DNA of 35,000 bases from Deltaproteobacteria bacterium (GTDB lineage: Bacteria > BMS3Abin14), in the NCBI GenBank assembly GCA_013151915.1, contig JAADHJ010000019.1:1-35000 (forward strand), in the 5' to 3' direction. The notes under the pieces were generated by a model. It had not been told where the DNA came from and searched no databases. It worked only from the letters and a program-made list of their open reading frames with translations. Shown here piece after piece: positions 15,255-31,715 of the stretch. The position numbers and the translations under genes are program-made. The first letter of the stretch is position 1. The number at the start of each line of letters is the position of its first letter.

Positions 15255-15268
15255 TTGATATGGATCAA
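15255..15268. promoter_or_regulatory. FNR/CRP-superfamily binding site (perfect FNR consensus)
   Basis: TTGAT-ATGG-ATCAA matches the FNR consensus TTGAT-N4-ATCAA at every fixed position and is fully symmetric. It overlaps the stop codon of the penicillin-binding protein gene (15265-15267) and lies 61-74 bases upstream of the hemerythrin/PAS start. Control by an anaerobic or NO regulator (FNR, Dnr or a relative) is inferred. Confidence 0.82.
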
Positions 15269-17253
15269 GGTATGGGGGATTGACCGGTTCGTTTGTCCTG
15301 TCCGCACTGCCGCGTCGGGGCGGTGCCCGGAAGGAAAGCCTCCACAATACGACTGGAACAGGCGGGCCCCGCCAGGAGACCCGAAACCGGATCGACCTCC
15401 ACCAGATCGATTCCTTCGGGCACGGGAAATGGTGTCGGAGGCACATCCTCAAGGGCGTTTTCCATGAAATTAATCCAGATGGGAAGGGCCGCCCTGGCCC
15501 CTGTTTCTCCGTGTCCGAGATTCTTTGAATGATCAAATCCAACCCATGCTCCGGCAACGAGGCCCGGAACGTAGCCGAGAAACCATGCGTCATGGTAATC
15601 ATCGGTGGTCCCCGTCTTGCCGGCGGTGGGGCGTCCCATGACTCTGGTCCCCCTGCCGGTCCCGTATTGGTCGACCCCCTCAAGGAGATTGGTCATCTGG
15701 AAGGCTACCTGCGGGGAGAGGACGTCCGATAGATGGGAGGAGGCCTCCCAAAGGACGGCGCCTTCACGGTCCTTCACTCTCTTGACGAGATGAGGGCCTG
15801 CCAGTATCCCGTTGTTGTCGAAAACGCCGAAGGCGGAGACCATCTGAAGGAGAGAGACATCGAAGGTCCCCAGGGCCATGGACGGGTACGGCTTCAGGTC
15901 GGCTGAAATGCCCAGGCGGCGGGCTGTGTCGATGACGGGTTGATAACCGAGGCGGAGCAGCAGGTCAACTGATGCAGCGTTGAGGGACTCCTCAAGGGCC
16001 GTTCTCATGGTGACGGGGCCATGGTATCGGCCGGAATAGTTCCTGGGGCTCCAGGGTTCGGATTGGCCCTTGATCGCTATCTCCAAGGGACTGTCATTGA
16101 GTATTTCAGAGGGGGTAAAACCGGATGAAAGAGCAGCGGCATAAAGAACGGGTTTAAAAGAGGACCCGGGCTGCCTCTTTGCCTGCGTGGCCCGATTAAA
16201 CGGCGAGGTGGTAAAGTCCCTTCCTCCAACCATGGCCTTGATCTCCCCGGTGGAGGGGTCCAGGGCGACAAACGCTGCCTGAACGGGTTCCGCACTCTCG
16301 CCGGGATGACGCATTCCGTAGCTTTTTAAGCCGTTTTTTACCGCCTTATCCGCATCCTTCTGCATGTCGAGATTCAAGGTTGACTCGATGACAAGGCCGC
16401 CACGGTAGATAAGATTGGCGCTGATTCTGGACTCCAGGTTACGCCTGACCATCTCCGTGAAATAGGGGGCAGGGTCTTCCGGGGATGCTGACGGTCGGAT
16501 GGTAACGCCCTCCTTGATGGTCCGGCGGTAGGTCTCGTCGTTGATGTATCCCTCGTTTAGAAGCCTGAGCAGGACAACCCGCATTCGGGCAACGGCCTTT
16601 TCCGGATGATTCAGAGGGGAGTAGAGGGTAGGGGAGCGTGGAAGCCCCGCGATCATGGCGCACTCGGCGAGATCAAGTTCTCTGACGCCCTTGCCGAAAT
16701 AGGTTCTCGCGGCGGCCTCGACCCCGTAGGCTCCTTCGCCAAGGTAGATCTGATTCAGATACATGGTGAGAATTTCGTCCTTTGAATATCTGCGTTCAAT
16801 ATTTATGGCTAGAATGGCCTCTTTGAGTTTTCGGGTGATAGTTTTTTCAGGGGTCAGGAACAGTACCTTGGCAAGCTGCTGTGTCAGGGTACTGCCCCCT
16901 TCGGCCATGCGCAGGGTGGTTACATCCTTCCAGAGGGCACGGGCGATACCCTTCATATCGAGGCCGAAGTGCTGATAGAAGCGGGAATCCTCGACGGCGA
17001 TAATCGCCTCGATGAGATCTTTCGGTATCTCCCGGAGGGGCACGGGTATTCTGCGCTCGACAAACAGGGAAGAGATGGGTGTCCCATCGTCCGATAGGAT
17101 GGTCGTGACGGCGCTGGGTTCATAGGTCGCAAGGGCCTCCACCTGCGGGAGATTCTGGGTCAGCGCCAGAAGTGCCCCCAACAGGGCGCCGATCACCATG
17201 GCGGCGGCAATGGGAAGCGCCACCCAATGCCATTTGATGTGTCGTAACAGCAT
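15265..17253 (-). CDS. mrcA: Penicillin-binding protein 1A (bifunctional class A PBP)
   Basis: The 662-residue protein is anchored by one N-terminal helix (VALPIAAAMVIGALLGALLA, about 11-30). The GT51 transglycosylase domain has IIAVEDSRFYQHFGLD (catalytic Glu88), EGGSTLTQQLAK and RKLKEAILAINIER. The transpeptidase domain has the nucleophile motif SSFK (Ser364), SLN (423-425) and KTGTT (546-550). It polymerises and cross-links peptidoglycan at the inner membrane. The start is ATG 17253 behind AAAGG; a longer TTG frame from 17307 would put a charged 18-residue extension before the anchor. Its stop overlaps the FNR-type box of the next gene on the same strand, so the two genes are close but separately promoted. 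The protein is shorter than enterobacterial PBP1A, as usual outside gammaproteobacteria. Confidence 0.94.
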   Translation of the reverse strand: MLLRHIKWHWVALPIAAAMVIGALLGALLALTQNLPQVEALATYEPSAVTTILSDDGTPISSLFVERRIPVPLREIPKDLIEAIIAVEDSRFYQHFGLDMKGIARALWKDVTTLRMAEGGSTLTQQLAKVLFLTPEKTITRKLKEAILAINIERRYSKDEILTMYLNQIYLGEGAYGVEAAARTYFGKGVRELDLAECAMIAGLPRSPTLYSPLNHPEKAVARMRVVLLRLLNEGYINDETYRRTIKEGVTIRPSASPEDPAPYFTEMVRRNLESRISANLIYRGGLVIESTLNLDMQKDADKAVKNGLKSYGMRHPGESAEPVQAAFVALDPSTGEIKAMVGGRDFTTSPFNRATQAKRQPGSSFKPVLYAAALSSGFTPSEILNDSPLEIAIKGQSEPWSPRNYSGRYHGPVTMRTALEESLNAASVDLLLRLGYQPVIDTARRLGISADLKPYPSMALGTFDVSLLQMVSAFGVFDNNGILAGPHLVKRVKDREGAVLWEASSHLSDVLSPQVAFQMTNLLEGVDQYGTGRGTRVMGRPTAGKTGTTDDYHDAWFLGYVPGLVAGAWVGFDHSKNLGHGETGARAALPIWINFMENALEDVPPTPFPVPEGIDLVEVDPVSGLLAGPACSSRIVEAFLPGTAPTRQCGQDKRTGQSPIP

Positions 17254-17374
17254 AATGCGTACCTTTATCTTCAGCCTGTCATTGCGAGCCGATAATATGC
17301 GACGCAATCCCGAAGATCAACAGTTAACTCATCACGCGGAAAGCCTTATAGACTGTTCATAGAGGAGATGAGTG

Positions 17375-19091: not shown

Positions 19092-20081
19092 CTACTTAAG
19101 CATACGATACCTGTCACCGATCTTCTCAAGTACGATCCCCCGTTTACCGAGGATCTGATGGGCCAGTTCTCTTACCACCGTGCTGTCGTCGTCTAGGAGG
19201 TCGGCAATGGCCGATATGTCCGAATCCACGGCGTTTGATGAGATTGCATTGAGGCTGATGTAGCGAACCCGTTTATCCGGATCTCCGAGGCTGTTCAGAA
19301 ATGCCTGCTTGGCATCCCGGTTGATACCCAGTTTTGACAGGGCTTCTCCACATCGAAAGCGAACGAGGTCGGAGGAATCGAAGAGGAGGCCGTTTATGAG
19401 GTTTTCGCGCGCGGCGGGTTCTCCCAGTTGACCCAGGGAGGTGGCGGCAAGGGAACGGACAACGGGGTCTTCATCTGATTCAAGCACTTTCATGAGGGGG
19501 TGTAGAGCCCCCACCGATCCAAGATTTCCAAGAGCCTGTGCGGCTGTTCCCCTCGTGAGAGAGTTGTGTGGTCTTTCCAGGTACCGCATGATGAATGCGG
19601 CTGATGATGGGTCGCCTATCCGGCCTATGCTGCGGATACATCGGGCGAGCAGGGAGATGTTTTCCGTCGACACGGCGGCGCCTATGAGAAACGAGACGGA
19701 TGACTGTTGGCCCAGGTCCCCAATGGCCCCGGCAGCCGCGATTTTAACCCCTGTATTCGGGTCAATGACAAGAATTCTTTCAAGAACAGGAAGAGCCTTT
19801 CGGTCACCCCTTGACCAGATGGCTCCTATAGCATGGCGCCTGATCTTGGGAACAGGGTCATTCTCGGCCATTTTCAGAAGGATTGGAAGGGAGGTAAGTT
19901 CCCTGTACGGTTTTATCGCCTGGATAGCGGCGAGGCGAACGGATTGATCTCCCGAACGCAGGTCGTCCAGAAGCGTCTTTGGGAAAACCCCATCCGCTGC
20001 CATGGAACCGCTTGGCAGGAGAACTGTAAAAACGGCGAGAAGGAGGGCCAAAGCGAAGAATGTTTGATTTCCACGGGTCAT
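19092..20081 (-). CDS. Secreted HEAT-repeat protein, last gene of the Agl/Glt-like operon
   Basis: The 329-residue protein has a signal peptide (FFALALLLAVFTVLLPSGSM, cleavage near AADG). About eight HEAT/PBS-lyase-type helical repeats follow, for example LLDDLRSGDQSVRLAAIQAI, LLKMAENDPVPKIRRHAIGA and LGDPDKRVRYISLNAIS. No catalytic motif is visible; such solenoids are protein-binding scaffolds. Export puts it in the periplasm, where it could dock on the TonB-like or TPR partners encoded upstream. ATG 20081 follows the AgmX/PglI-type gene by eight bases, which supports one transcript. I do not know a counterpart in the Myxococcus Agl/Glt set. Confidence 0.82.
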   Translation of the reverse strand: MTRGNQTFFALALLLAVFTVLLPSGSMAADGVFPKTLLDDLRSGDQSVRLAAIQAIKPYRELTSLPILLKMAENDPVPKIRRHAIGAIWSRGDRKALPVLERILVIDPNTGVKIAAAGAIGDLGQQSSVSFLIGAAVSTENISLLARCIRSIGRIGDPSSAAFIMRYLERPHNSLTRGTAAQALGNLGSVGALHPLMKVLESDEDPVVRSLAATSLGQLGEPAARENLINGLLFDSSDLVRFRCGEALSKLGINRDAKQAFLNSLGDPDKRVRYISLNAISSNAVDSDISAIADLLDDDSTVVRELAHQILGKRGIVLEKIGDRYRMLK

Positions 20082-20089
20082 CAGGCCGC

Positions 20090-21511
20090 CTACATGCTGG
20101 GGAAGAAGACCAGGGGGTAGCTCACGGTGACAGTCCCCTCAGGAATTTTGGGAAATTTCCAGCCCAGGACCATGCGGACAAGGGATTCCTCCAGAGGCGG
20201 CCATTTCATCTCGGATTCCTGAACCGTGCATTTTATTACATCGCCCTCCGGCGAGATGGAAAAAGCCAGGACGATCTTGCCCCTGAGGGCCGGGTTCTTT
20301 CGCAGTTCCCTGTTATAGGCGTACCGGATGGCGCCGGTATGGGAGGCAACGACCCGTGAGATTACTCGGGAGGAGCGTTCGTCCCTCGTCTCGGGGCGAA
20401 TCACCTCCGTTTTTTCGGCGGGTCCCGGGGCGGCCGTACCACCACCGATGTCAGAAACCTGTATCCGGCCGCCTATACCCTCCCCGGCGATCTTCCCGTC
20501 GATGGTTATCAGGCCGCTCCCCGTATCCTCCCGGTTCCCGGTTCCCGATCCGCCGCCGGCCCCTGTTCCGGGTACGGTTATACCACGAACCTCGGAGAGA
20601 ACCCTGTCGAGGTCGCGTTCCATTTTCTCGTTTAACTGCAGAGCCGTCACGCCTTTTTCCCCTGCCGTTCTTCCGGCGTTGCCTCGGCCGGTGAGGACCC
20701 CCAGGACACCGATTCCTGAAACGTGTCGGCGGGTTGTCTCAACTCCGCCGCCGGGGGCAGGAACCTTGGAGGGACCCGGCAGGACCGCCGATTCACGGGT
20801 TTCGGCGAGGGGCGTTTCCTTTCCCGTCTTTACCGCTCCACCCGTCTCCGGACCCTTTGGAGCCGATTCCTTTTCGGATGGCCTGATGACGCGGGGGATT
20901 GGTGGAGGAGCGGACGGTTCCAGGATGAGCCTTGAGATGCGCCTGGGAAGCTGCTGGAGGGTCCTTATCTCCGGGATAGGGTAATCACGAAGGCCGCGAA
21001 CGGAAAGGACCTCCAGGGCGAATACGAGGAGTAGAATGGCGGTGAAAACGATATCCGAGGGATCGGGAAACCCGAAACGCAGGCGGAAGGGAACGGTTCC
21101 GCACGGGGTGGCCGGGGATACTGTCTGAACCGGGAGCACCTCGCCAAAGGCCATGCGGAACGTAGTGTCCCCGATGGAGAATTCCGCGGACGTATCGTTG
21201 TCAAGGGGCATTACGTACCCGGAAGAGGTCTTATGGGCGAGTCCCCAGTGGACCATCTGGTCAAGGCTGAGGGCCGATCCACCCTTCCGGAAGCTGCCGT
21301 GAGACCCGGTGGGCAGCTTCAGGATGTACCCCCTGAAGCCCTTTTTGAGGATCGTCAGCCTTCCGTGTTCGCTGTGAGGATCGGGGATATCGCATTTCCA
21401 GTCCTTTCCGATGGACAGAGAACGGCCTTTGATGACCGATCTGCCCAGCAGTTGTCCTCCCCTGAAAAGGGATATTTCGGGTCTGAGCTTTTTCACGCCG
21501 GGATTTTCCAT
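20090..21511 (-). CDS. FHA-like/transmembrane/AgmX-PglI C-terminal (TonB-like) protein, GltG-type
   Basis: The 473-residue protein has three parts. First, a cytoplasmic FHA-like domain (about 10-130): LSIGKDWKCDI, HSEHGRLTIL and GSHGSFRKGG resemble the GR, S-H and NGT points of FHA in weakened form. Second, one membrane helix, DIVFTAILLLVFALEVLSV (about 153-171), with a Pro/Gly/Thr-rich periplasmic linker. Third, a TonB-like domain at about 385-470: IRYAYNRELRKNPALRGKIV, SPEGDVIKCTVQES and RMVLGWKFPKIPEGTV are typical of the AgmX/PglI C-terminal family. This architecture is that of GltG/PglI, which spans the envelope in Myxococcus gliding. ATG 21511 overlaps the ExbD stop (TGATG); a GTG at 21514 is also possible. 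It should carry motion or energy from the ExbB/D motor toward the outer membrane. Confidence 0.85.
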   Translation of the reverse strand: MENPGVKKLRPEISLFRGGQLLGRSVIKGRSLSIGKDWKCDIPDPHSEHGRLTILKKGFRGYILKLPTGSHGSFRKGGSALSLDQMVHWGLAHKTSSGYVMPLDNDTSAEFSIGDTTFRMAFGEVLPVQTVSPATPCGTVPFRLRFGFPDPSDIVFTAILLLVFALEVLSVRGLRDYPIPEIRTLQQLPRRISRLILEPSAPPPIPRVIRPSEKESAPKGPETGGAVKTGKETPLAETRESAVLPGPSKVPAPGGGVETTRRHVSGIGVLGVLTGRGNAGRTAGEKGVTALQLNEKMERDLDRVLSEVRGITVPGTGAGGGSGTGNREDTGSGLITIDGKIAGEGIGGRIQVSDIGGGTAAPGPAEKTEVIRPETRDERSSRVISRVVASHTGAIRYAYNRELRKNPALRGKIVLAFSISPEGDVIKCTVQESEMKWPPLEESLVRMVLGWKFPKIPEGTVTVSYPLVFFPSM

Positions 21512-22011
21512 CACTCCTTGGTGAAAACCGCGAGTGACTGGTTTATGAAACCGGCCTGGCCGCTGGTGTAGAGAATCTTTTTCAATAGTCTGAACGGGAT
21601 CTCCCTGTCGCCCTCCAGGACCATCCTTCCGGTGAACTTCACGTCCGGGTTTGCGGATGAGATTTCCTCGTATTGCCTGACCCTTTTGGAAAGGTAGTCG
21701 TAAAGCTCGGGTATCATCAGAGAATCGGAACTTTCGACCTTTCCCAGGTCAAGGGGGAGAGGAGTCCCGTTAACCACAATAACCTCCTTGGACAGCTCGA
21801 TGATAAGCCCCGGGACAGGCTGGGATTGAGTTGTGGAGTCGGGGAGGTGCAGGTCGGCGGGAATAGTCAGGATGACGCCTTCGGCCGAATAGGACTTCAG
21901 GAGGAAGATGATCAGGATGGTAAACATGTCCAGCATGGAGGTTATGTTCAAAACGACCAGGCTTGGGCTTTTTCTTCTGATACCGCGGCGCTTTGTGGGA
22001 GCGTAAGCCAT
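21511..22011 (-). CDS. ExbD/TolR-family motor protein with the proton-path Asp
   Basis: The 166-residue protein has a basic cytoplasmic N-terminus (MAYAPTKRRGIRRK), one membrane helix and a periplasmic domain. The helix LNITSMLDMFTILIIFLLKS (about 21-40) carries Asp28, the residue that takes part in proton flow in ExbD, TolR and MotB and in Myxococcus AglQ. The periplasmic part includes VILTIPADLHLPDST and the usual VVNGTPL turn. Its partners are the ExbB-like and second ExbD-like proteins directly upstream. It starts two bases after the other exbD gene's stop and overlaps the GltG-type gene. The C-terminus (SGQAGFINQSLAVFTKE) resembles the end of TolR-type domains. Confidence 0.9.
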   Translation of the reverse strand: MAYAPTKRRGIRRKSPSLVVLNITSMLDMFTILIIFLLKSYSAEGVILTIPADLHLPDSTTQSQPVPGLIIELSKEVIVVNGTPLPLDLGKVESSDSLMIPELYDYLSKRVRQYEEISSANPDVKFTGRMVLEGDREIPFRLLKKILYTSGQAGFINQSLAVFTKE

Positions 22012-22013
22012 GC

Positions 22014-22502
22014 TCAGCGGACCTCCACAACCCTGTCGGCGAGGGAGATATCCGGGAAAAGCTCCTTTCCCTCATGTTCCCTTACCGTGTCCATCACCTG
22101 AATAATGGTCTGGTAGAGAATGGAACCATCCAGGAGGAGGACGATATCCCGTTTGCCGGGGAATTCCGACTTCAGTTCGGCCAGAGACGCGCCGAGGCCG
22201 GACAGGTCCAGACCATCGTCAACCACGTCACGGAACAGTGTCAAGCTGCCTTTTCTCAGGGTCAGTTCCGTTGGGGAGATGGAGATTGCGAGGGTGAAAT
22301 CGGTCGTTGCACCGGTGTCTCCGGGCTGTTGCATCGACTCCTCGGTGGTTGGCAGATAGAGATTAACGATGCCGACCTGCTGGAATATGGCCGTGAGAAG
22401 GAGCATGGGGATAAGGGCGACGAAGAGGCTGAGCAAAGGGGCCAGATTCAGATCCACAATATAGTGGGTTCTCTTTCGCCGGTGGGTCGGTCGGAAGGCC
22501 AT
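22014..22502 (-). CDS. ExbD/TolR-family protein lacking the membrane Asp
   Basis: The 162-residue protein has the same layout as its neighbour: a basic start (RPTHRRKRTHYIVDLNLAPL), one helix and a periplasmic domain ending DISLADRVVEVR. Aligning Asn19 with Asn22 of the other ExbD puts Ser25 (codon AGC) where that protein has Asp28, so the helix has no acidic residue (LLSLFVALIPMLLLTAIF). It probably cannot take part in proton transfer itself and may be a structural half of an unequal ExbD pair. The gene abuts the ExbB-like gene exactly (TAA then ATG) and precedes the Asp-bearing ExbD gene by two bases. Confidence 0.88.
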   Translation of the reverse strand: MAFRPTHRRKRTHYIVDLNLAPLLSLFVALIPMLLLTAIFQQVGIVNLYLPTTEESMQQPGDTGATTDFTLAISISPTELTLRKGSLTLFRDVVDDGLDLSGLGASLAELKSEFPGKRDIVLLLDGSILYQTIIQVMDTVREHEGKELFPDISLADRVVEVR

Positions 22503-23132
22503 TTACCTACGGTTCCCTTCGGATGAAGACAGGATGTTGACCATTCTTACCGCCACCCGGTCCACCTGCTCGGTAAGACGGTTCGCCTTGGACTGGAGAA
22601 AAGCGTAGAAAAAGAGGCAGGGGATGGCCACTACCAGGCCGAAAGCGGTGGTGTTCAACGCGATTGCGATCCCTTTCGCAAGTACGGCGCCCTTCTGGGA
22701 AGCCTCCGCCCCGGCCACGGCGTTAAAGGAATGCATCAGGCCGATGATTGTCCCGAGAAGCCCCAAGAGGGTTGCGACATTGGCCGCCATCGCGAGATAG
22801 TGAACCCTCTTTTCGATGAGAGGAAGGACCTCCATCGCCGATTCGTCGACGGCGTTCTGAACCTCTCTCGTGGAGAGCCCCGCGCTTTTTAAGGCGGCAT
22901 TCACAACTTTGGGGATGGGGGTTCGATCACACAGGTTCAACGCTCCATCGATGTCCCCCTTGTCCGTGAATTCAACGATTTTTCCGAAAAAGGCCTCATC
23001 GTCGATGCCGTAACGGATGGCGAGAAAGTATATCCTCTCGATGATAATGGCGGCTGCGAAGATCGAGACGGCCAGGATCGGGTACATGAAGGGCCCTCCA
23101 TCCCTGAATGCCTGGGCGATAAGTGTTATCAT
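22503..23132 (-). CDS. MotA/TolQ/ExbB-family proton channel protein (AglR-like)
   Basis: The 209-residue protein has three predicted membrane helices. The first is MYPILAVSIFAAAIIIERIY (about 16-35). The second lies in YLAMAANVATLLGLLGTIIG (about 110-130). The third lies in IAIALNTTAFGLVVAIPCLF (about 153-172). The LLGLLGTIIGLMHSF and ALNTTAFGLVVAIP stretches are the ExbB/TolQ signature, including the Thr residues lining the proton path. A cytoplasmic loop (FTDKGDIDGALNLCDRT) joins helices 1 and 2. With the two ExbD proteins it would form a proton-motive-force motor for the GltG-type protein. The start is ATG 23132, behind GAGGGAAAG. The 180 bases upstream contain a repeat copy, so this gene may need its own promoter or read-through. 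Confidence 0.93.
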   Translation of the reverse strand: MITLIAQAFRDGGPFMYPILAVSIFAAAIIIERIYFLAIRYGIDDEAFFGKIVEFTDKGDIDGALNLCDRTPIPKVVNAALKSAGLSTREVQNAVDESAMEVLPLIEKRVHYLAMAANVATLLGLLGTIIGLMHSFNAVAGAEASQKGAVLAKGIAIALNTTAFGLVVAIPCLFFYAFLQSKANRLTEQVDRVAVRMVNILSSSEGNRR

Positions 23133-23172
23133 CTTCTTTCCCTCCTAATGCGTTTTCGCGCCGAAAAACAAT

Positions 23173-23331
23173 GTTGATAGGGTCGTAAAAAATTCATCCA
23201 TGGCTTTTTGCTCAACGGAAAGCGAAAAGTGTCATTTTCACTTTCCTTACAAATCAACAACTTGCGCTGCAAGTCATTGATTTGTGCGCCCATTAATGGG
23301 CGCATTGATGACTTATTGCGAAGTCATCAAT
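23173..23331 (+). repeat. Multi-hairpin dispersed repeat, copy A (159 bp)
   Basis: It starts GTTGATAGGGTCGTAAAAAA and ends in ATTGATGACTT/AAGTCATCAAT (23304-23331). Inside are a GGAAAG/CTTTCC hairpin, a CTTGC/GCAAG hairpin and a perfect GCGCCC-ATTAAT-GGGCGC hairpin (23286-23303). Copy B is 31734-31912 in the same orientation. This copy lies between the ExbB-like and 96-aa genes of one operon and overlaps the end of the latter by 19 bases. Confidence 0.88.
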
Positions 23332-23603
23332 GTTCGAAGCAGGATCTCTTCCTGTATCCGTTGCGGATCGATATATCGAGCCGCCGGTCCCCGGAAGCTC
23401 CTTTCCAGGGGAATGTGGCTGAACCGGATCACGGTTTTTGGAATAATGTAGGTGACCTCGGGGTGTTCGATAATTCCAATGATCCTTGTTTCCTCCATGC
23501 GGATATAGTTGCGGTTTTTTCCATCGTCGCCGGGGGATTTTCGCGGGGATAATAACGATAATATGGCCAACAGGACGAATGTCAGCAGTGATTTCCTCGT
23601 CAT
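23313..23603 (-). CDS. Small secreted protein of unknown function (96 aa) in the Agl/Glt-like operon
   Basis: I do not recognise a family. ATG 23603 overlaps the stop of the TPR gene as ATGA; the frame is open further upstream, but that part lies within the TPR gene. A signal peptide (MTRKSLLTFVLLAILSLLSP) is followed by a short mature part: RNYIRMEETRIIGIIEHPEV, TYIIPKTVIRFSHIPLERSF and DPQRIQEEILLR. The pattern of beta-like hydrophobic stretches and a final amphipathic helix suggests a small periplasmic fold. The last residues (LMTSQ) and the stop codon are encoded by the end of a dispersed repeat, so the original C-terminus may have differed. Position next to motor genes suggests a role in that machine. 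Confidence 0.75.
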   Translation of the reverse strand: MTRKSLLTFVLLAILSLLSPRKSPGDDGKNRNYIRMEETRIIGIIEHPEVTYIIPKTVIRFSHIPLERSFRGPAARYIDPQRIQEEILLRTLMTSQ

Positions 23604-24760
23604 TCCTTCGGTCTCTCCTTCTCCGGCCGTGAGCCGGCCCGGCCGGCCAGGTAATCGATCCACCCCTGCACCCGCTCGGACCCGCCGCCCCTGGAACCGG
23701 AAAACTTCCGGTAATGTGCCAGGGCCTTTTCCGGGGACCCCAGGTACAGTTCGTAAAGGACGCCCAGATTCAGGTGAAGATCCGGATCATCCGTGGCATT
23801 TATCCCGTCCTCGTACACCGATTCGGCGTCCCTGAAACGACCCCTTCGCCTCAATGTGAGCCCCAGGTCCAGATAACCATCTGGTGATTGTGGAGTCAAC
23901 TCTATGAATTTCCGGAAATTCTCCTCAGCAACCGGCAGATTTCCCTTCTGGAGGTTGAGAACCCCCAGAAGAAGAACAGTTTCAGGTCCGCCGGGATCCC
24001 TGTTAAAAAGGCGTTCCAGGTCCTCTTCCGCCAGGTCCGGCCGGCCCTCCTTCAGTTCGATCTTGGCCCGGGTGCCAAAAAGGGTCGGATTATTGTAATC
24101 ATCATGGCCCAGTATATCCAGCGCCTCGGAACTGAGTCCAGCGAGATCCAGGGCCACGGCCAGAGTATTCCTCACCATCTCGCTGGAGTTTGCCCTGTCA
24201 AATACAGGCTGGAGAACGGGAATGGCGTTGTCCGGCCTGCCGTTTTTTACCCTCATATAGGCAAGACGTTCGGCTGCTTGAATATTCCCCGTGGATTTAA
24301 AAACCCGGGCATAATATTTTTCGGCATCGGACATGTTTCCCGTTTTTTCCGCCAGGTCCCCCATGCCGAGAAGAGCGGTCGGGTTACCCGCGTCCAGTTG
24401 GAGCGCGTTTTGGAACGCCCGGCGGGCCATGGCGTCCTTTCCCTCATTCAACGCGGCCAGACCGAGCATCAGCCATGGATATGGATGGCTGGGCAGAACT
24501 TTCGTGAGCGCGATCATTTCGAGCGTCGTAGGGGTAGTTGATGACCGTTCCCGGTGGGAGATGGTCCCCACTATGTCGGCCAGAATTTTTTTCGCCTCTT
24601 CGGAAATATCCACCTCGCCGGCTTTAACCGCACCAGCTGCCACGGGAGGAATTGTTATCCGGACGGGTGGTTGTGAAACCTTGCCGGCGGGGGTCGCGCA
24701 TCCCCAGGTGAAAAGGGAGAGCAGGCCGACAACGGCCACGGAGGTTATCCTTTTTTTCAT
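23600..24760 (-). CDS. TPR-repeat lipoprotein (about 386 aa), GltE-like by architecture
   Basis: The signal MKKRITSVAVVGLLSLFTWGC ends in a Cys with small residues before it, so a lipoprotein is likely, though Trp at -2 is unusual. The mature protein is a TPR solenoid of about eight to ten repeats: PYPWLMLGLAALNEGKDAMA, NPTALLGMGDLAEKTGNMSD, AEKYYARVF, VLLLGVLNLQKGNLPVAEEN and GYLDLGLTLRRRGRFRDAES are typical. It should lie on the periplasmic face of the outer membrane and hold partners together. Its size, lipobox and place beside ExbB/ExbD and GltG-type genes match the TPR lipoprotein (AglT/GltE) of Myxococcus gliding, but homology must be tested. Both junctions are ATGA overlaps. Confidence 0.85.
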   Translation of the reverse strand: MKKRITSVAVVGLLSLFTWGCATPAGKVSQPPVRITIPPVAAGAVKAGEVDISEEAKKILADIVGTISHRERSSTTPTTLEMIALTKVLPSHPYPWLMLGLAALNEGKDAMARRAFQNALQLDAGNPTALLGMGDLAEKTGNMSDAEKYYARVFKSTGNIQAAERLAYMRVKNGRPDNAIPVLQPVFDRANSSEMVRNTLAVALDLAGLSSEALDILGHDDYNNPTLFGTRAKIELKEGRPDLAEEDLERLFNRDPGGPETVLLLGVLNLQKGNLPVAEENFRKFIELTPQSPDGYLDLGLTLRRRGRFRDAESVYEDGINATDDPDLHLNLGVLYELYLGSPEKALAHYRKFSGSRGGGSERVQGWIDYLAGRAGSRPEKERPKE

Positions 24761-27669
24761 GGAGTCGCCTCAGGCTTGTAATCCCTGTTCATAAGCGCCG
24801 CCGAGATGCTCTTTATGCTGGGGATTGCGGGCGCCATGATGGGCGGCGGGTGGGCAAGTGTGAGGGGATAGGATACTTTTTCCTCCCGTTCAAAAGCCCA
24901 TGGGGCAAGGTTGGCCAGCCGCTGGTAGCTTTTTTCGATCCATGGGTTCAGAATCTGAAGCGCTACGGCCCTGTCCACATTGATCCGATAGGCCTTGAGC
25001 GCCTTCTCCTCGAAGGGATATGCCTTTTCCTGGAGGAGAAGTTCATACTCTTCGAGTTCTTGCGGTGTGAGCCCATCCGGCTTTGGTGAATTGAGAATCG
25101 AATCCTTGAACTCCTCCAGAGCCAGGCCGATATAGTAGTTGGAAGCCGTGCTGACCTCGGCAATATTGTACTTTCCAGCCCCAACGAAGTTCCCGATAAC
25201 CTCCTGGAGAAGAATTCTCTTCCCCACCGTGGTCTTCTCAAGAGGCGGCTCTATCCTGAGTTCACGGTACCGTGAATATGATTCTTCAGCTATGTGCAGC
25301 TGGGATCTGGCCGCATCAGGGGCAAGGCGTTCGGAAAGAGGATTTTCTTTTTGGATGCGGATTACTTCAGCGTATTTTCCCAGGGCTTTGGCCCACATCC
25401 CGGCCGACTCCAGGTTTTCGCCCATCAGGAGAAGCTGGCGGGAACGGCGTTCTACCGGTTCGGGCGCCTCCTTGACGGCAAGCGCCCTCAGGGACGCGGC
25501 CCTCGCGAATGCCTGTCCCTCGGCGAAAAGGTCGGCCGATTGAATAAGCGCCGAAATACGATCATCACCGGAAGACCGGCCGGCCAGAGCCAGGCTGTCC
25601 TCAGCGGCCCTGACCGGGGCGCCCAGGGCCCGGAGGATGTGGACCGAAGTTGTCAAAGCCTCAGAGGCCAGGTCAGATTTTCTGTAGGCGGCGGCCAACT
25701 CTTCGAACAGGGATGTGGCTTTCATCTCAAGTCCCATGTTCCTGTAGGTCTGGCCGGCATTGTAAAGGGATATCTGGGCCACGTCGGAATCGGGAAAACG
25801 CCTGTAAATGGATTCGAAACGTTCCGCCGCATCGCTGGGTTTTTTCTGTCGGCTCAGTTCCTCGGCATCTTTGAACAGCGAGTATATGAGGAGTTTCTTC
25901 GCCTCCGTGCGATCTTCGGGGTCATCGCTTTTTCTCCATGCTTCCCGGAACCACGCTGAGGCCTGTTTGAAATCGTTTTCCTTGAAGAAGGTCTTTGCCA
26001 TAAGCAGGCGGGCGCCGGCCGACTCCCGGGAGGACGGGTATTTCCGTATGAGGTGCGAAAGGTGTCTCCTGGTCTCCTGATAGCGGGCGGAATTCAGGGA
26101 GATACGGGCCAGGGTCAGGATCGCTTTCGGTGTCGCGGGATTTTGAGGCGCGGCTTCTTCAAGAATACTGACCGTCTTGCCCAGGATACTCAGGTCGACC
26201 GTTTTTGTCCTGTTGTAAACGTCGGTCTGAAAATTAAAGGATCTGATGGCCGCCGTCTCTGCCCTGCTGATACAGGTCTCCCTCTCCGCCAGGGTGTTCA
26301 GGGTGAGTGCAGCCTCCGGATAAGCGTTCATGTCCGCCAGGGTCAGCCCCTTCAGGTACTGGATGTCGCACGGCTCCCGGCCCGAGGTAATCCGGCCGTA
26401 TTTTTCAAGATCGGCCAGAGCTTTTTCAAGCTCCTTTTCCGTGCCCCCGGCCTGGAACCTTGCGCGGCGGCGCTCAGCCGAGGTTTCCAGGTTCTCAAGG
26501 ATTGCGGCCATAGCTTCTCCACGCGCCGTTTCCCGAGCCCCTGCATACCATGGGGAGTCGGGGCCCAGAATTTCAGGATAAGATTCGGCCAGGTTAAGGG
26601 CCGCGGCCGTATCGCCTTGAATATGGTAGCTTTCGATAAGGTGGGCGAGCACGGCGGGAAGATCCTTTCCACCGGGATATCTCTTGATATAGGTCCTGAA
26701 GGTTCCGATTGCTTCAGGGTAGAGGGAACGTTCCTTGTAAAGGTCGGCAAGTCTGAAAAGGATTGCCGGGGCTCGGGAATCCCTGGGTCTGGATGAGAGT
26801 TTTTTTGCCAGTGCCGGTGTTCCTCCTTTTTCCGCGTAGGCCCTGGCGATTATGCTTATGGACTCATCCACCAGGCTTCCCGCCGACGGTTCCGGCTTCG
26901 CGTCCAGGTCCAAGAGCGAAAAAAAAGTGTCGATGGCCTCTTCGTACCTGTCAAGATTGTAATAACACCACCCGAGCTTATAAATGGCTTTGTCCTTAAA
27001 GGTGTTATTATCGCTTTTTGCCGCAATCCGGTAGTGGACGATGGCCTCTTCCAGATTCTCCTTGTCGAAATAGTATTCGCCCAGTCTCATACTTATTTCG
27101 AGTGCGTATCGGGTATCCGGATAGAGGTCAATAAGCCTGGAATACCATCCGGCGGCCCGGTCGGCGTCCCCCTGCTCCGTATAACAGTACGCCAGGCCGT
27201 AAAGAGCGTCCTCGACGAGGGGATGACGGGGGAAACGGTCAATGAGGGCTTGGTATGCCTCGATGGCCCGGTGAAAATCCGGTTTGGGATCGGCGGCCTC
27301 TCCTTTTTCATCCAGGAACTTCTGGATTCTCACTCTCTCCGTCTCGAACAGAAGCTCGGCGAGCCGGAAAGACGCTTCGGCCATGTAATCGTTGCGGTTT
27401 TCCGGAAAACGCTTGAGGAGTGATTCATAAAGTTCGATACTTCTCAAACGGGCTTCGGACTCCTGCCTGGCCAGAAAAGCCGCCCCCCCATGTTTTCTGC
27501 CGGTGATGAGCCGGTTGATGGATGTTTCCTCCGTTTTTCTGGCCCGGTCTATTTCCATCAAGAGCTTTGCCTCGCGTTCTCTGGGCGTCATGAGGGAATT
27601 GTTCGTGGGGGCTGTAGCGCATCCGGTTATCAGGAGGATTATGACCGTGGCGGCAATGGACTTTCTCAT
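24757..27669 (-). CDS. Large TPR-repeat lipoprotein (970 aa)
   Basis: The N-terminus (MRKSIAATVIILLITGC) has a good lipobox (ITGC, Cys17). The rest is a long TPR array with two denser blocks. The first block, about 60-300, includes YMAEASFRLAELLFETERVR, HPLVEDALYGLAYCYTEQGD, RYALEISMRLGEYYFDKENL and AIYKLGWCYYNLDRYEEAID. The second, about 500-700, includes LNSARYQETRRHLSHLIRKY, RLLMAKTFFKENDFKQASAW and DVAQISLYNAGQTYRNMGLE. It resembles the BamD/YbgF-like outer-membrane TPR style repeated many times. By size it could stand for the large TPR protein (AgmU/GltD) of the Myxococcus machine. ATGA overlaps join it to the genes on both sides. Confidence 0.85.
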   Translation of the reverse strand: MRKSIAATVIILLITGCATAPTNNSLMTPREREAKLLMEIDRARKTEETSINRLITGRKHGGAAFLARQESEARLRSIELYESLLKRFPENRNDYMAEASFRLAELLFETERVRIQKFLDEKGEAADPKPDFHRAIEAYQALIDRFPRHPLVEDALYGLAYCYTEQGDADRAAGWYSRLIDLYPDTRYALEISMRLGEYYFDKENLEEAIVHYRIAAKSDNNTFKDKAIYKLGWCYYNLDRYEEAIDTFFSLLDLDAKPEPSAGSLVDESISIIARAYAEKGGTPALAKKLSSRPRDSRAPAILFRLADLYKERSLYPEAIGTFRTYIKRYPGGKDLPAVLAHLIESYHIQGDTAAALNLAESYPEILGPDSPWYAGARETARGEAMAAILENLETSAERRRARFQAGGTEKELEKALADLEKYGRITSGREPCDIQYLKGLTLADMNAYPEAALTLNTLAERETCISRAETAAIRSFNFQTDVYNRTKTVDLSILGKTVSILEEAAPQNPATPKAILTLARISLNSARYQETRRHLSHLIRKYPSSRESAGARLLMAKTFFKENDFKQASAWFREAWRKSDDPEDRTEAKKLLIYSLFKDAEELSRQKKPSDAAERFESIYRRFPDSDVAQISLYNAGQTYRNMGLEMKATSLFEELAAAYRKSDLASEALTTSVHILRALGAPVRAAEDSLALAGRSSGDDRISALIQSADLFAEGQAFARAASLRALAVKEAPEPVERRSRQLLLMGENLESAGMWAKALGKYAEVIRIQKENPLSERLAPDAARSQLHIAEESYSRYRELRIEPPLEKTTVGKRILLQEVIGNFVGAGKYNIAEVSTASNYYIGLALEEFKDSILNSPKPDGLTPQELEEYELLLQEKAYPFEEKALKAYRINVDRAVALQILNPWIEKSYQRLANLAPWAFEREEKVSYPLTLAHPPPIMAPAIPSIKSISAALMNRDYKPEATP

Positions 27670-29639
27670 CTGGCAGTTTTCCGCATGGCCTGTAATGTTT
27701 TCTCCATCCGATGGATCTCTATATCTGCCGCTGTGAATACGGCCCTGGCATCTGCTTCCCTTAAAGCGGATTTGGAACTTTCCGCGATCTCAAGCAGTCT
27801 TGAATCCCTCAGCGCCGCAGTCCTGGAAAGGAAGGTGGAGATCCTTTCCATGGTTGCCGTCCCCATCTGTTTGATCCGGTGATTCAGGTCGTCCCTGGCC
27901 TGAAGCAGCCGGTCCCGCCGTTCCAGAAGAAGACTGACGGCCTTTTCATTTTTTCTCCGCAGGAGGCTGATGAGACTCATTTCCCTGGAAACCCTGGAAG
28001 AGGATTCCCTCTCGAAATTCATCGCCTCACCCTTGGCGATGAGCCAGACCCTTCCTTCAAGGGCTTGCAGAGAGGAGCGTATCCGGCGCAGGGAGGATCT
28101 GGATGAGACCAGCCCTTCATATGCGTTTTTTCTTATGCGGTTAATCTGTTCTTCCTCCCCGGAAGCGGGAATGGAGCTTTTAATGCTGTCGATGATCCCG
28201 TAAAAGCCCCGGACTTTCCCTGCGTTGGCTGTAACACTTTCAAGACGCTCCTGAGAGGCGCGGATCCTTGTGAGTAATTTTAATGCTTCCTTGGGCGCAA
28301 AATCTTTAAGTGAGTTCCTTTCGAGGGCCTGGATGACATCTTTCCTGAAAGAGGGAAGACGGGTCAGGGCGGACTGCAGCAGGACCCGGGTTTCCTTTGT
28401 CTCCTGGAGCTGCTTTTCGGTAAACCGGATCTCACGCTGGAGGAGTTCAACGGATCCCGCGCTCTTTTCCCGGAGCCTCCCCGCCTCATTCAGGAGCTTT
28501 TCGCCCCCTTCTATCAGGGTTGACATCCATCGTACCTGGGGATCCCGGGAAGCCTGGATCAACCACTGAAGGATAAATCCAGGTGTTTTATTCAGGATTT
28601 CGGGGTCAGGTTGCATGCCCCGCAGGGCGTCACCCAGAAGGACGATGAGATCGGAACCCGGTTTGAAGTCGGAAGCCTGGAGGGACCCCAGCCAAACGCG
28701 GACCTCCGTCAGGTGTTTCGATTCCCTCGTCAGAAGTTGGGCCGCGTTGCTGTAAAGTCCTAATTCCCTGTAACAGAGCGCCAGATCGATCACCCCTTTC
28801 CTGGCGGCTGGGGAGTCGGGATAGTTGTAGATGAGTTCCTGGAGCCTCACCGCGGCCCCGGTCAGATCATCCCTTCGAATAAGCACCCATGACTGGCCAT
28901 GCAGAGCCTCGGGCGCATAGGGGCTGGAGGGTGGAAGGGCAAGGAAGGAGCTTCGGGCGAGTTTGAGATTCCCCGATTCCAGGTAGTCATACCCCCTGAG
29001 AAGGTAGATGAGATCTGTTATGGGGGTTGTCTCGGTGGTTTTGAAAGAGGCCAGGATGGAGGCCGAGTCCTCCCAACGGTTTAACGCTGCATAACTCTGG
29101 GCGATGGCGGCAGTGGCCAGCGCGCTCTGATCCGTACCATCCTTTTTTACCGATTCGAAAAGTGCGATGGCTCTTTTCCCCTTACCTTCCCGCAGGAGAA
29201 GAGAACCGAGGTAAAGCGCCGTTTTATCTGTAATTCTACCGTCAAGATCCGGGGGGACAGGTGGAGGAGGGAGTCCGGGCATTGATCCCATCAGCTGGAT
29301 ATATCGAACAAGGGAAGCGTTCCACAACGGCTCTTCAGGTGACTTTGCGGCAATTGCTCCGGCGTAGGCCTCGGCCGCCCTGGAGAAAAGGCCAAGGGAT
29401 CTCAATGCTTCTCCCCGGTAATAAAGGGCCTTTACGCCTACGGACCTCGTTGTGGAAGTAAGCCTGATTACATCCATGACATCGTTTTTCATGTAACGGC
29501 CGATTACCAGGCGGTCCAGAAGGCCCTGGTCAAGCGGCGCCCATCGTCTGCCGTCAAGGGTAATTCCCGCCCGGACAGGGGCGATCCCGGTGGTTATCAG
29601 AAATAGAAGACTGAACGTCAGTGGGCGCAATCTTTTCAA
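27666..29639 (-). CDS. Secreted TPR/coiled-coil protein (657 aa)
   Basis: A signal peptide (LTFSLLFLITTGIAPVRA, about 7-24) precedes an N-terminal TPR half: GVKALYYRGEALRSLGLFSR, TAAIAQSYAALNRWEDSASI, APEALHGQSWVLIRRDDLTG and KGVIDLALCYRELGLYSNAA. The C-terminal half, from about residue 370, is rich in charged heptads, for example LLQREIRFTEKQLQETKETR, LRRIRSSLQALEGRVW and SLLLERRDRLLQARDDLNHR, and should form long coiled coils. The start is TTG 29639: it follows the previous stop directly, with AAAGGA seven bases upstream, and no ATG fits before the signal peptide. The product is probably a periplasmic scaffold long enough to bridge proteins across the envelope. I know no exact counterpart. 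Confidence 0.83.
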   Translation of the reverse strand: MKRLRPLTFSLLFLITTGIAPVRAGITLDGRRWAPLDQGLLDRLVIGRYMKNDVMDVIRLTSTTRSVGVKALYYRGEALRSLGLFSRAAEAYAGAIAAKSPEEPLWNASLVRYIQLMGSMPGLPPPPVPPDLDGRITDKTALYLGSLLLREGKGKRAIALFESVKKDGTDQSALATAAIAQSYAALNRWEDSASILASFKTTETTPITDLIYLLRGYDYLESGNLKLARSSFLALPPSSPYAPEALHGQSWVLIRRDDLTGAAVRLQELIYNYPDSPAARKGVIDLALCYRELGLYSNAAQLLTRESKHLTEVRVWLGSLQASDFKPGSDLIVLLGDALRGMQPDPEILNKTPGFILQWLIQASRDPQVRWMSTLIEGGEKLLNEAGRLREKSAGSVELLQREIRFTEKQLQETKETRVLLQSALTRLPSFRKDVIQALERNSLKDFAPKEALKLLTRIRASQERLESVTANAGKVRGFYGIIDSIKSSIPASGEEEQINRIRKNAYEGLVSSRSSLRRIRSSLQALEGRVWLIAKGEAMNFERESSSRVSREMSLISLLRRKNEKAVSLLLERRDRLLQARDDLNHRIKQMGTATMERISTFLSRTAALRDSRLLEIAESSKSALREADARAVFTAADIEIHRMEKTLQAMRKTAR

Positions 29640-30221
29640 TCAGTGTTCCTTTGACCAGTATCTGGCGGTCAGGTCGAAGCTCTTCCCCATCTTTTCCCGG
29701 TTTGTCCGAAAGAGGTTGATCTCCATGAAATTGGCCGAGGCCCTGCGCGGCTCAAATTTGAAAACGGCGGATAACGTCTCAACCTTGAGGGAGGGTTTCA
29801 CCTCCGTCTGTATCTGACACCTGACATCCAGATTGTGAGGGCCGGGCTCCATTATGCCGGAGTATATCTCCAGCGATCCCCCCCGGATAAGGAGGAAACG
29901 ATCGGCCTCCGACAACTGCCTGGTGACAAGGGGGTGGTCATCCATGCGGATTTCAAGAGAAAGGGGGATGGCCCGGATCCGGCCGCCGGATGAGAAGAAC
30001 AGTGATACCGAGGTGATTTTGGGATCAACGAGGTCCTCCAGGAGGCTGTTCACCTTCTTCTCGATTGTATTGAGTCTCTGCTCTATCTGGGACAGCTCGG
30101 TTTCGAGGCCGCTGATTGATCCTTTTCCGGTTTCCGCTCCGAAGCTGACGGTAGGAGCGGCAAAAACGATGAGAAAAAAAATCGCGGTCAGGAGAGAAAA
30201 AAATCCCGATATGGTTTTCAT
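29640..30221 (-). CDS. Secreted coiled-coil protein of unknown function (193 aa)
   Basis: A signal peptide (FSLLTAIFFLIVFAAPTVSF) is followed by a short coiled coil (GLETELSQIEQRLNTIEKKV). Then comes a beta-rich domain with TSVSLFFSSGGRIRAIPLSL, LEIRMDDHPLVTRQLSEADR, LEIYSGIMEPGPHNLDVRCQ and FKFEPRRASANFMEINLFR. The pattern, in which a ligand-like value is computed around PGPHNLDV, resembles small beta-sandwich proteins, but I cannot name a family. The coiled coil could form trimers or dimers. ATG 30221 lies behind GGAGG. The gene ends one base before the TTG of the TPR/coiled-coil gene. Confidence 0.75.
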   Translation of the reverse strand: MKTISGFFSLLTAIFFLIVFAAPTVSFGAETGKGSISGLETELSQIEQRLNTIEKKVNSLLEDLVDPKITSVSLFFSSGGRIRAIPLSLEIRMDDHPLVTRQLSEADRFLLIRGGSLEIYSGIMEPGPHNLDVRCQIQTEVKPSLKVETLSAVFKFEPRRASANFMEINLFRTNREKMGKSFDLTARYWSKEH

Positions 30222-30242
30222 GCGTCCTCCCGGTTAACCCTG

Positions 30243-31679
30243 CTATTTTGAAATAAAGTATCCATTTGGAATGGAAACCCGGGTTACAGTCCACCTGGAG
30301 TTGATTCCGGGTGACATGGTGAACGGTCCGAAGATGCGCGTAATGCGCCTGGAAGGTTCAGCCGGGTGAAGAACAACCGTCACCTGGGCCTTGCATGGAA
30401 TGCCTTTCAGCGAATGATGATAGCGGGCCCCGATTGTATAGATCCCTTTCGGGCCGCCCGCGAAGGTAAAGACCTCAGGTCCGAAACCATCCTTGTCGTC
30501 CAGATCAAGTCCGCCCCCGGGTATGGCCTCGCTGTTGTCATATGGGTCCAGGGCGCGATAGTAGGTGTGTTTCCCTTCAGGCCCCCAGACGTGAAGATCA
30601 AGATCAACCCCGGGCTTGTCCCATGTGAGGAAAACGACCATGTCCTTGGGAGCCATGTTGATGGTTTTTACGGAAATGTCAGGGCTTGTGGCGGTCTTGC
30701 CGAAAATGTCCAGCGCCTCGACCCTCAGTTTGTTCTTCTCCCGGATGAGGACGATCGGTTGAGAAAACCGTCCCTGCCCGTCTACCTCAATGCGTCTGGG
30801 AGAGCCGTTAAGGAAGAGGAAGCTCTCCTTGAGGACGGTTTTTGACATGATCTGCCCGCTGACCTGAACCACAGGGGAAATGGTGGTGTTGAACACGTCC
30901 CCATCCCTTGGATGGGCCAATTTTACCTGCGGCGGGGGCGGAATGTAAACGATCTTGACCTGGTCCCTTCCAGACCTTCCGGACCGGTCCCACGCCATGA
31001 TCTCAATGAGGTTGTCACCTTTTTCCAGGACTATCTCGCTTTCCACCCTGGATTTGTTGACGGCGATGAGGCTCGAAATTCCGTTCACGGTCAGAAGAGC
31101 GGTGTTGGAATCACCCTCAACGATGGCATTTACCCGCTGGTAGGCCCGGCTGACGGTTCCTGCCCGTGGTTCCAGAATGAGGACCTTGCCTGGATTGACA
31201 TTCGGTTGGGGAACCGGTTTTATCACTTTTCCCCCGGGGGATGCCAGGCTTATGATCACCCGTCTGTTCAGGTTCTGCGCGTCGAGGTCACCGTGGCTGA
31301 TCAGCGCCCCGCTTTCCCCTGCCGATCTGACGTCGATGCGGTCCTCCGGAAATCCGGAGACGGTCGCCAACTGGTCGGCGACTTCATGGGCATAGTAATA
31401 TCCAATGCTGATATTTTCCTCAGGAGAGCCGAAGGTGTCGGTGTGTCCGGTTACGACGATGATGAGAGAGAGGTCCTTCCTGACGCGGTCCCGCATGCGC
31501 AAAAGGCGGTCCTTGACGTCCGCACCAGCCTGATCGGCAAGCCAGCCGGCAGGAACATCCACGGAGATGTCCTCGCCGGACGTCCCGGGGCCTTTGACCA
31601 CCGGTGACCGGGCCAAGGCGCCTGTTACCATTGACAAGAATACAAGGATACTCAAAAGCGCGAGAGGTGTCCGGTTCAT
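30243..31679 (-). CDS. OmpA-like domain/DUF2135 secreted protein, first gene of the Agl/Glt-like operon
   Basis: The 478-residue protein has a signal peptide (MNRTPLALLSILVFLSMVTG). An OmpA-like domain follows (about 45-147: VVTGHTDTFGSPEENIS through GESGALISHG and QNLNRRVIIS). Two Ig-like segments with the VNGISSLIAVNKSRVE and FLFLNGSPRRIEVDGQGRFS turns come next. A DUF2135/YfaP-type domain ends it (about 341-478: VDLDLHVWGPEGKHTYYR, GGGLDLDDKDGFGPEVF, RYHHSLKG). The usual LSxxRA helix of OmpA domains reads ISIGYYYAHEV here, so peptidoglycan binding is uncertain. It could anchor the machine to the wall or outer membrane. The start is ATG 31679, not the upstream frame start at 31715, because the signal peptide begins there. 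The gene faces the ppx-like operon across a 349-bp gap. Confidence 0.85.
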   Translation of the reverse strand: MNRTPLALLSILVFLSMVTGALARSPVVKGPGTSGEDISVDVPAGWLADQAGADVKDRLLRMRDRVRKDLSLIIVVTGHTDTFGSPEENISIGYYYAHEVADQLATVSGFPEDRIDVRSAGESGALISHGDLDAQNLNRRVIISLASPGGKVIKPVPQPNVNPGKVLILEPRAGTVSRAYQRVNAIVEGDSNTALLTVNGISSLIAVNKSRVESEIVLEKGDNLIEIMAWDRSGRSGRDQVKIVYIPPPPQVKLAHPRDGDVFNTTISPVVQVSGQIMSKTVLKESFLFLNGSPRRIEVDGQGRFSQPIVLIREKNKLRVEALDIFGKTATSPDISVKTINMAPKDMVVFLTWDKPGVDLDLHVWGPEGKHTYYRALDPYDNSEAIPGGGLDLDDKDGFGPEVFTFAGGPKGIYTIGARYHHSLKGIPCKAQVTVVLHPAEPSRRITRIFGPFTMSPGINSRWTVTRVSIPNGYFISK

Positions 31680-31686
31680 CGGAACC

Positions 31687-31715
31687 TTATTAACACGCCG
31701 CCCATAGGGTTTCAA
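31687..31715 (-). promoter_or_regulatory. Possible sigma70-type promoter of the Agl/Glt-like operon
   Basis: On the minus strand, TTGAAA (31715-31710) and TAATAA (31692-31687) are 17 bases apart. The -10 element lies only seven bases before the start codon, so the transcript would begin at or next to ATG 31679, which would be leaderless. The match may be chance. Confidence 0.25.

What the first reader, a model, noticed from the sequence alone, without database searches (positions are those of the whole stretch)
19092..31679. Eleven-gene Agl/Glt/Nfs-like envelope machine with unrecognised parts
Seen: one minus-strand block with an ExbB-like channel, two ExbD-like proteins, an FHA-like/TM/AgmX-PglI C-terminal protein, two TPR proteins with lipoprotein-type signals, a TPR/coiled-coil protein, an OmpA-like/DUF2135 protein, a HEAT-repeat protein and two small secreted proteins. 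Most junctions overlap or abut. Known: Myxococcus Agl (AglR/Q/S) and Glt/Nfs proteins use such motors with GltG-type proteins and TPR lipoproteins for gliding and spore-coat assembly. Inferred: this is a related proton-driven trans-envelope machine in a bacterium with no other sign here of gliding genes. The OmpA-DUF2135, HEAT and 657-aa proteins have no counterpart I know, so the function may be new, for example polymer transport or surface assembly.
Basis: partly seen in the sequence, partly recalled or inferred. Interest (0 to 1): 0.85.

Follow-up and report, generated by a model that had tools for sequence, protein, structure and literature searches.

The report
Stand-alone Agl-Glt envelope motor operon
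This is an eleven-gene operon for a proton-driven machine spanning both cell membranes, a new relative of the known core of the Myxococcus gliding motor, and its motor has the unusual trait that only one of its two axle proteins keeps the acid residue that binds protons.

Summary
The operon is real: eleven minus-strand genes at 19092-31715 with mostly overlapping or abutting junctions. It is a complete stand-alone Agl-Glt core complex (Luciano 2011 'Group B': GltC, D, E, G + AglR, Q, S), not Tol or TonB. The order GltD-GltE-AglR-Q-S-GltG recurs in about 40 loci outside this small phylum (Geobacter relatives, gamma-, beta- and alphaproteobacteria, Nitrospirota, Nitrospinota, Myxococcota). The parts called unrecognised resolve as follows: the 657-aa protein is GltC-like; the small secreted protein is GltF/CglF-like; the 193-aa protein is a conserved core gene (coiled coil plus beta-sandwich). 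Only the OmpA-Ig-DUF2135-like protein and the HEAT protein are accessory; one outside lineage shares both, another the first. Here ExbD1 has Ser and ExbD2 has Asp; no operon has none. Ordinary ExbD/TolR and Myxococcus-type pairs keep it in both. This predicts an obligate heterodimeric axle with one titratable site. Gliding is unproven; the load is probably an envelope or surface component. Novelty: a new variant of a known kind.

The parts
30243..31715 (-). OmpA-like domain + two Ig-like domains + DUF2135-like C-terminal beta domain, signal peptide (likely start ATG at 31679)
   Evidence: Pfam OmpA 2.1e-7, Glucodextran_B 4.9e-9; model and fold search, best hits bacterial Ig adhesin SiiE; strong match in 8 of 12 genomes of the phylum; distant homologues head the operon in L058 and L064. 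PG-binding Arg replaced by Tyr in all.
29640..30221 (-). 193-aa secreted coiled-coil + beta-sandwich protein, conserved core gene upstream of GltC
   Evidence: Alignment A2 of 30 sequences, AlphaFold pLDDT 86, no PDB match below 1e-3; distant hits in Archangium and Myxococcus.
27666..29639 (-). GltC-like TPR/coiled-coil protein (657 aa)
   Evidence: Same position and profile family in other core operons; profile hits a GltC-type protein in Archangium and Myxococcus.
24757..27669 (-). GltD-like TPR lipoprotein (970 aa)
   Evidence: Alignment A1 incl. conserved C-terminal non-TPR region; 275 relatives in genome collection.
23600..24760 (-). GltE-like TPR lipoprotein (386 aa)
   Evidence: NCBIfam GltE 9.5e-19, below cut-off; synteny.
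23313..23603 (-). GltF/CglF-like small secreted protein (96 aa)
   Evidence: Motif IxGxIExPxxxYIxP shared with the Myxococcus protein at the GltF position, which hits NCBIfam CglF.
22503..23132 (-). AglR-type ExbB/TolQ channel (209 aa)
   Evidence: PF01618 1.4e-29.
22014..22502 (-). ExbD1 (AglQ position), lacks the TM aspartate: LAPLL[S]LF
   Evidence: PF02472 9.6e-10; residue count.
21511..22011 (-). ExbD2 (AglS position), keeps the TM aspartate: ITSML[D]MF
   Evidence: PF02472 4.4e-10.
20090..21514 (-). GltG-like transducer: N-terminal domain (FHA-like by motif only), one TM, linker, AgmX/PglI TonB-like C-terminus
   Evidence: NCBIfam GltG 6.8e-30 (below equivalog cut-off), AgmX/PglI C-terminal domain 7.4e-26 above cut-off.
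19092..20081 (-). Secreted HEAT-repeat protein (329 aa)
   Evidence: HEAT_2 2.5e-41; follows GltG in other members of the phylum and in L064.

Best explanation
This is a stand-alone Agl-Glt core complex with two accessory proteins. Supported by homology and synteny: AglR plus two ExbD proteins form the inner-membrane proton motor; GltG is the TonB-like transducer; GltC, GltD, GltE, GltF and the 193-aa protein form the periplasmic and outer-membrane-side platform. Supported by sequence: only ExbD2 carries the proton-binding Asp. Inferred: ExbD1 and ExbD2 form an obligate heterodimer inside an AglR pentamer, with one titratable site per axle; GltG passes the motor's force to the GltC/D/E platform; the OmpA-Ig-DUF2135-like protein is the outer load or brace and the HEAT protein a periplasmic scaffold. 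The machine most likely moves, assembles or anchors an envelope or surface component rather than driving gliding by itself. The confidence given is for membership and general mechanism; for the heterodimer it is about 0.45, and for the load and cellular function only about 0.3.
For: Gene order GltD-GltE-AglR-Q-S-GltG in about 42 loci outside the phylum, with the 193-aa gene and GltC in front in about 25. GltG model 6.8e-30, GltE 9.5e-19, AgmX/PglI C-terminus above cut-off. Myxococcus loci recovered by the GltD alignment show GltC-like, GltD, GltE, GltF, GltG in the same order. Concatenated tree: the phylum's operons are one clade (100) with L064 as sister (99). ExbD pairs: N/D 43, S/D 8, D/D 8, D/A 1, none without Asp; about 40 ordinary ExbD loci and the Myxococcus/Archangium pairs are all D; of 16 unrelated adjacent ExbD pairs, 14 were D/D, one N/D, and in one only one member aligned. 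An ordinary single ExbB/ExbD set sits elsewhere in the genome (C22).
Against: GltG and GltE scores are below NCBIfam equivalog cut-offs, and no GltC-specific or AglRQS-specific model hit the window proteins. The FHA domain is not confirmed. The OmpA domain keeps the Asp but has Tyr for the DAP-binding Arg in every member, so peptidoglycan anchoring is doubtful. Heterodimer formation, stoichiometry and load are untested. In the congeneric genome G001 the contig joins the GltC gene to the GltG gene with the motor between them missing and only one ExbD remains in that genome, so the machine may be dispensable, unless this is a misassembly.
Confidence: 0.85

Rival explanations
1. It is a true gliding machine of Agl-Glt type in this phylum, directed by MglA/MglB.
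For: MglB homologue in 11 of 12 genomes, with MglA beside it in this genome; all seven core genes plus a GltF-like gene.
Against: None of the other Myxococcus gliding genes (GltA, B, H, I, J, K, CglB) is recognisable in the operon; PilM is present in 12 of 12 genomes, so MglAB may serve type IV pili; Luciano 2011 argues that the core is not sufficient for gliding.
Confidence: 0.12
2. ExbD2 alone forms the homodimeric axle in the AglR pore, and ExbD1 is an accessory helix outside the pore, like TonB or TolA.
For: ExbD1 lacks the Asp in 51 of 60 operons.
Against: ExbD1 keeps the ExbD domain along its length (PF02472) and its TM motif; the one case with the reverse loss (L078: D in ExbD1, A in ExbD2) fits a rule of at least one Asp per pair.
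Confidence: 0.25
3. It is an ordinary Tol-Pal or TonB system with extra genes.
For: TolQ/ExbB homology, an OmpA domain, TPR proteins hitting YbgF profiles.
Against: No TolB, no Pal lipoprotein, no receptor gene in the operon; two ExbDs; GltG-type transducer; separate ExbB/ExbD pair elsewhere in the genome.
Confidence: 0.02

Closest known systems
Stand-alone Agl-Glt core complex of Geobacter and gammaproteobacteria (Luciano 2011, PMC3169522)
   Same: Same core genes in one cluster; core reported as conserved and of unknown function.
   Different: Here with a GltF-like gene (classed in 2011 as restricted to Myxococcales and Bdellovibrionales), an OmpA-Ig-DUF2135-like gene first, a HEAT gene last, and Ser instead of the usual Asn at the lost Asp of ExbD1. 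Geobacter relatives have Asp in both ExbDs.
Myxococcus Agl-Glt gliding machine
   Same: AglR/Q/S, GltC, D, E, F, G counterparts.
   Different: No recognisable GltA, B, H, I, J, K in the operon; genes are in one cluster; Myxococcus-type ExbD pairs keep both Asp.
Myxococcus Nfs spore-coat machine
   Same: GltC-G type parts in one cluster.
   Different: Nfs uses AglRQS encoded elsewhere (PMC3858216); here the motor is within the operon.
Tol-Pal / TonB-ExbBD
   Same: Motor family and TonB-like C-terminal domain.
   Different: Two unlike ExbDs, TPR platform, no TolB/Pal or receptor.

Membership tests
Agl-Glt core complex (Group B) | GltD, GltE, GltG homologues clustered with AglR, Q, S | tested here: met
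Agl-Glt core complex (Group B) | GltC homologue in the cluster | tested here: met
   Profile A3 from the window family and its counterparts hits GltC-type proteins of Archangium (3.5e-28) and Myxococcus (1.3e-17), the latter NCBIfam GltC 1.2e-18; the window protein itself shows no direct GltC model hit
Agl-Glt core complex (Group B) | Motor ExbDs with conserved TM aspartate | tested here: inconclusive
   Met by ExbD2, lost in ExbD1, as in 51 of 60 core operons
Myxococcus gliding machine | Gliding-specific genes GltA, B, H, I, J, K | tested here: not met
   None recognisable in the operon; models exist for only some of them, and the rest of the genome was not searched for them
Myxococcus gliding machine | MglA/MglB regulators in the genome | tested here: met
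   not specific, since PilM is also present
Myxococcus gliding machine | Drives surface motility | not testable with these tools
   No culture or phenotype
Tol-Pal | TolB and Pal beside TolQR | tested here: not met
   No such proteins in the operon or beside it
Peptidoglycan-binding OmpA/Pal family (the 490-aa protein) | Asp and Arg that bind diaminopimelate | tested here: not met
   Asp93 kept, Arg replaced by Tyr in all members; residue roles from general knowledge

The most novel reading that the evidence does not exclude
Stand-alone Agl-Glt core motors are naturally half-charged: an obligate ExbD1-ExbD2 heterodimer with one proton-binding Asp turns in the AglR pentamer, so a turn would use about five protons instead of ten and the axle has a built-in polarity. 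That would show whether both carboxylates of a 5:2 motor are needed, and that the two ExbD proteins of Agl-type motors pair with each other.
Probability: 0.45. Interest if true: 0.8.

Novelty: new variant of a known kind. Interest (0 to 1): 0.62.

Why it matters
A 2022 review of 5:2 motors (PMC9389320) says that AglQ and AglS are both predicted to carry the Asp and that it is unknown whether they form homo- or heterodimers. The systematic loss in one partner, with near-strict retention in the other, argues for heterodimers and gives natural variants with which to test how many proton sites such a motor needs. The finding also extends the core machine to a small candidate phylum, adds GltF and the 193-aa protein to the core parts list, and points to OmpA or Ig-domain envelope proteins next to the motor as candidate loads. 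I found no report of the asymmetry in the papers searched; most subscription papers are not covered.

Tried and rejected
Tol/TonB reading: rejected by synteny and a separate ExbBD elsewhere. Plasmid search with the GltD-like protein: no match. PF09906 for DUF2135: no hit. Pfam FHA: no hit in ten GltG relatives. Fold search with the 193-aa model: only generic beta-sandwich matches, none below 1e-3. Attempt to name the phylum from accession or bin names: nothing found. MAFFT first misplaced the Geobacter ExbD1 Asp; recounted by profile column. A regular expression for the OmpA motif failed on the giant Desulfuromonadia proteins; reading the sequence showed the canonical Arg. Apparent splitting of the operon in the single-contig MAGs G003 and G009, which also lack the GltG C-terminus and the HEAT gene, was set aside as a possible assembly problem.

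Full report
What is there. Eleven minus-strand genes fill 19092-31715 with overlaps or short gaps, except for a 180-bp gap between the 96-aa gene and the ExbB gene. The genome (2.27 Mb, 60 contigs) belongs to a phylum of which only 12 genomes in one family and eight genera are held.

Which parts they are. In operon order: (1) OmpA-Ig-Ig-DUF2135-like protein; (2) 193-aa secreted protein; (3) GltC-like; (4) GltD-like; (5) GltE-like; (6) GltF/CglF-like; (7) AglR-type ExbB; (8) ExbD1; (9) ExbD2; (10) GltG-like; (11) HEAT protein. A scan of named genomes with a GltD alignment gave 275 relatives, of which 80 were kept. Of the loci examined, about 42 outside the phylum keep GltD-GltE-AglR-Q-S-GltG in order, and about 25 also have the 193-aa gene and GltC in front (a few loci are duplicates of one genome, and one, L048, is a second core operon in a phylum member, G004). 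They include Geomonas, Citrifermentans, Woeseiaceae, Peristeroidobacter, Nitrospirota and Myxococcota.

The parts called unrecognised. The 657-aa protein sits at the GltC position; its family profile hits GltC-type proteins of Archangium and Myxococcus beside their GltD. The 96-aa protein shares the motif IxGxIExPxxxYIxP with the Myxococcus protein at the GltF position, which hits the CglF model. Luciano 2011 held gltF to be restricted to Myxococcales and Bdellovibrionales, so this broadens it, on a short motif plus position. The 193-aa protein is conserved across phyla and is modelled as a coiled coil plus beta-sandwich without a specific PDB match. It may be the 'additional gene' of the core that Luciano 2011 mentions (the figure is not held), but weak homologues do occur in Myxococcus and Archangium, next to a GltC paralogue.

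Accessory parts. The OmpA protein and the HEAT protein bracket the operon in the phylum and in L064, the sister in the concatenated tree (support 99; L064 is a long branch); L058 shares the first. The OmpA domain has the Asp but not the canonical Arg. In Desulfuromonadia the same operon position holds a roughly 1700-aa protein with two OmpA domains, and in gammaproteobacteria a roughly 1800-aa DUF11/Cna-B-like secreted protein follows GltG. These are candidate loads; this is inference.

The motor asymmetry. At the proton-binding position of the ExbD transmembrane helix, 60 core pairs read N/D 43, S/D 8, D/D 8, D/A 1; none lacks Asp in both. The states need at least five changes on the ExbD1 tree. 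Ordinary ExbD/TolR and Myxococcus/Archangium pairs all have Asp, and among 16 unrelated adjacent pairs only one shows N/D. This suggests an obligate heterodimer with one titratable site, which is inferred and not shown.

Function. The standing view is that the core is a basal transport machine of unknown function and is not sufficient for gliding (PMC3169522; PMC3858216). MglA and MglB are present but so is PilM, so they are not evidence for gliding. I favour force delivery to an envelope or surface component; the identity of that component is open.

Noticed in passing
window about 23160-23325 (gap between GltF-like and ExbB genes): About 160-bp interspersed repeat with imperfect terminal inverted repeats (TTGAT...ATCAA) and several consecutive hairpins (z -9.2); 53 matches in this genome and 40 in its congener, none in one other genus of the family: MITE- or REP-like family.
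   Followed up: partly
L039:12000-12070 (genome G001): In the congeneric genome the GltC gene is joined directly to the GltG gene; the GltC C-terminus, GltD, GltE, GltF and the motor are missing and only one ExbD remains in the genome.
   Followed up: partly
L048 (genome G004, contig C30): A member of the same family carries a second, distinct core operon that groups with Desulfobacteria in the tree, probably acquired horizontally.
   Followed up: partly
L084, L089, L090, L091, L109, L114, L129 upstream; L069, L077, L121, L125 and others downstream: Giant 1500-1900-aa proteins next to core operons: two OmpA domains in those scanned from L084 and L089, DUF11/Cna-B-like domains in those scanned from L069 and L121.
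   Followed up: partly
L078:16118-17282: Core operon with the reverse asymmetry: Asp in ExbD1, Ala in ExbD2.
   Followed up: no
L233 (G000 contig C47): MglB and MglA homologues downstream of what look like ybaB and recR genes.
   Followed up: partly
window 15265-17307: Bifunctional penicillin-binding protein gene near the operon's 3' side, kept there in several relatives.
   Followed up: no
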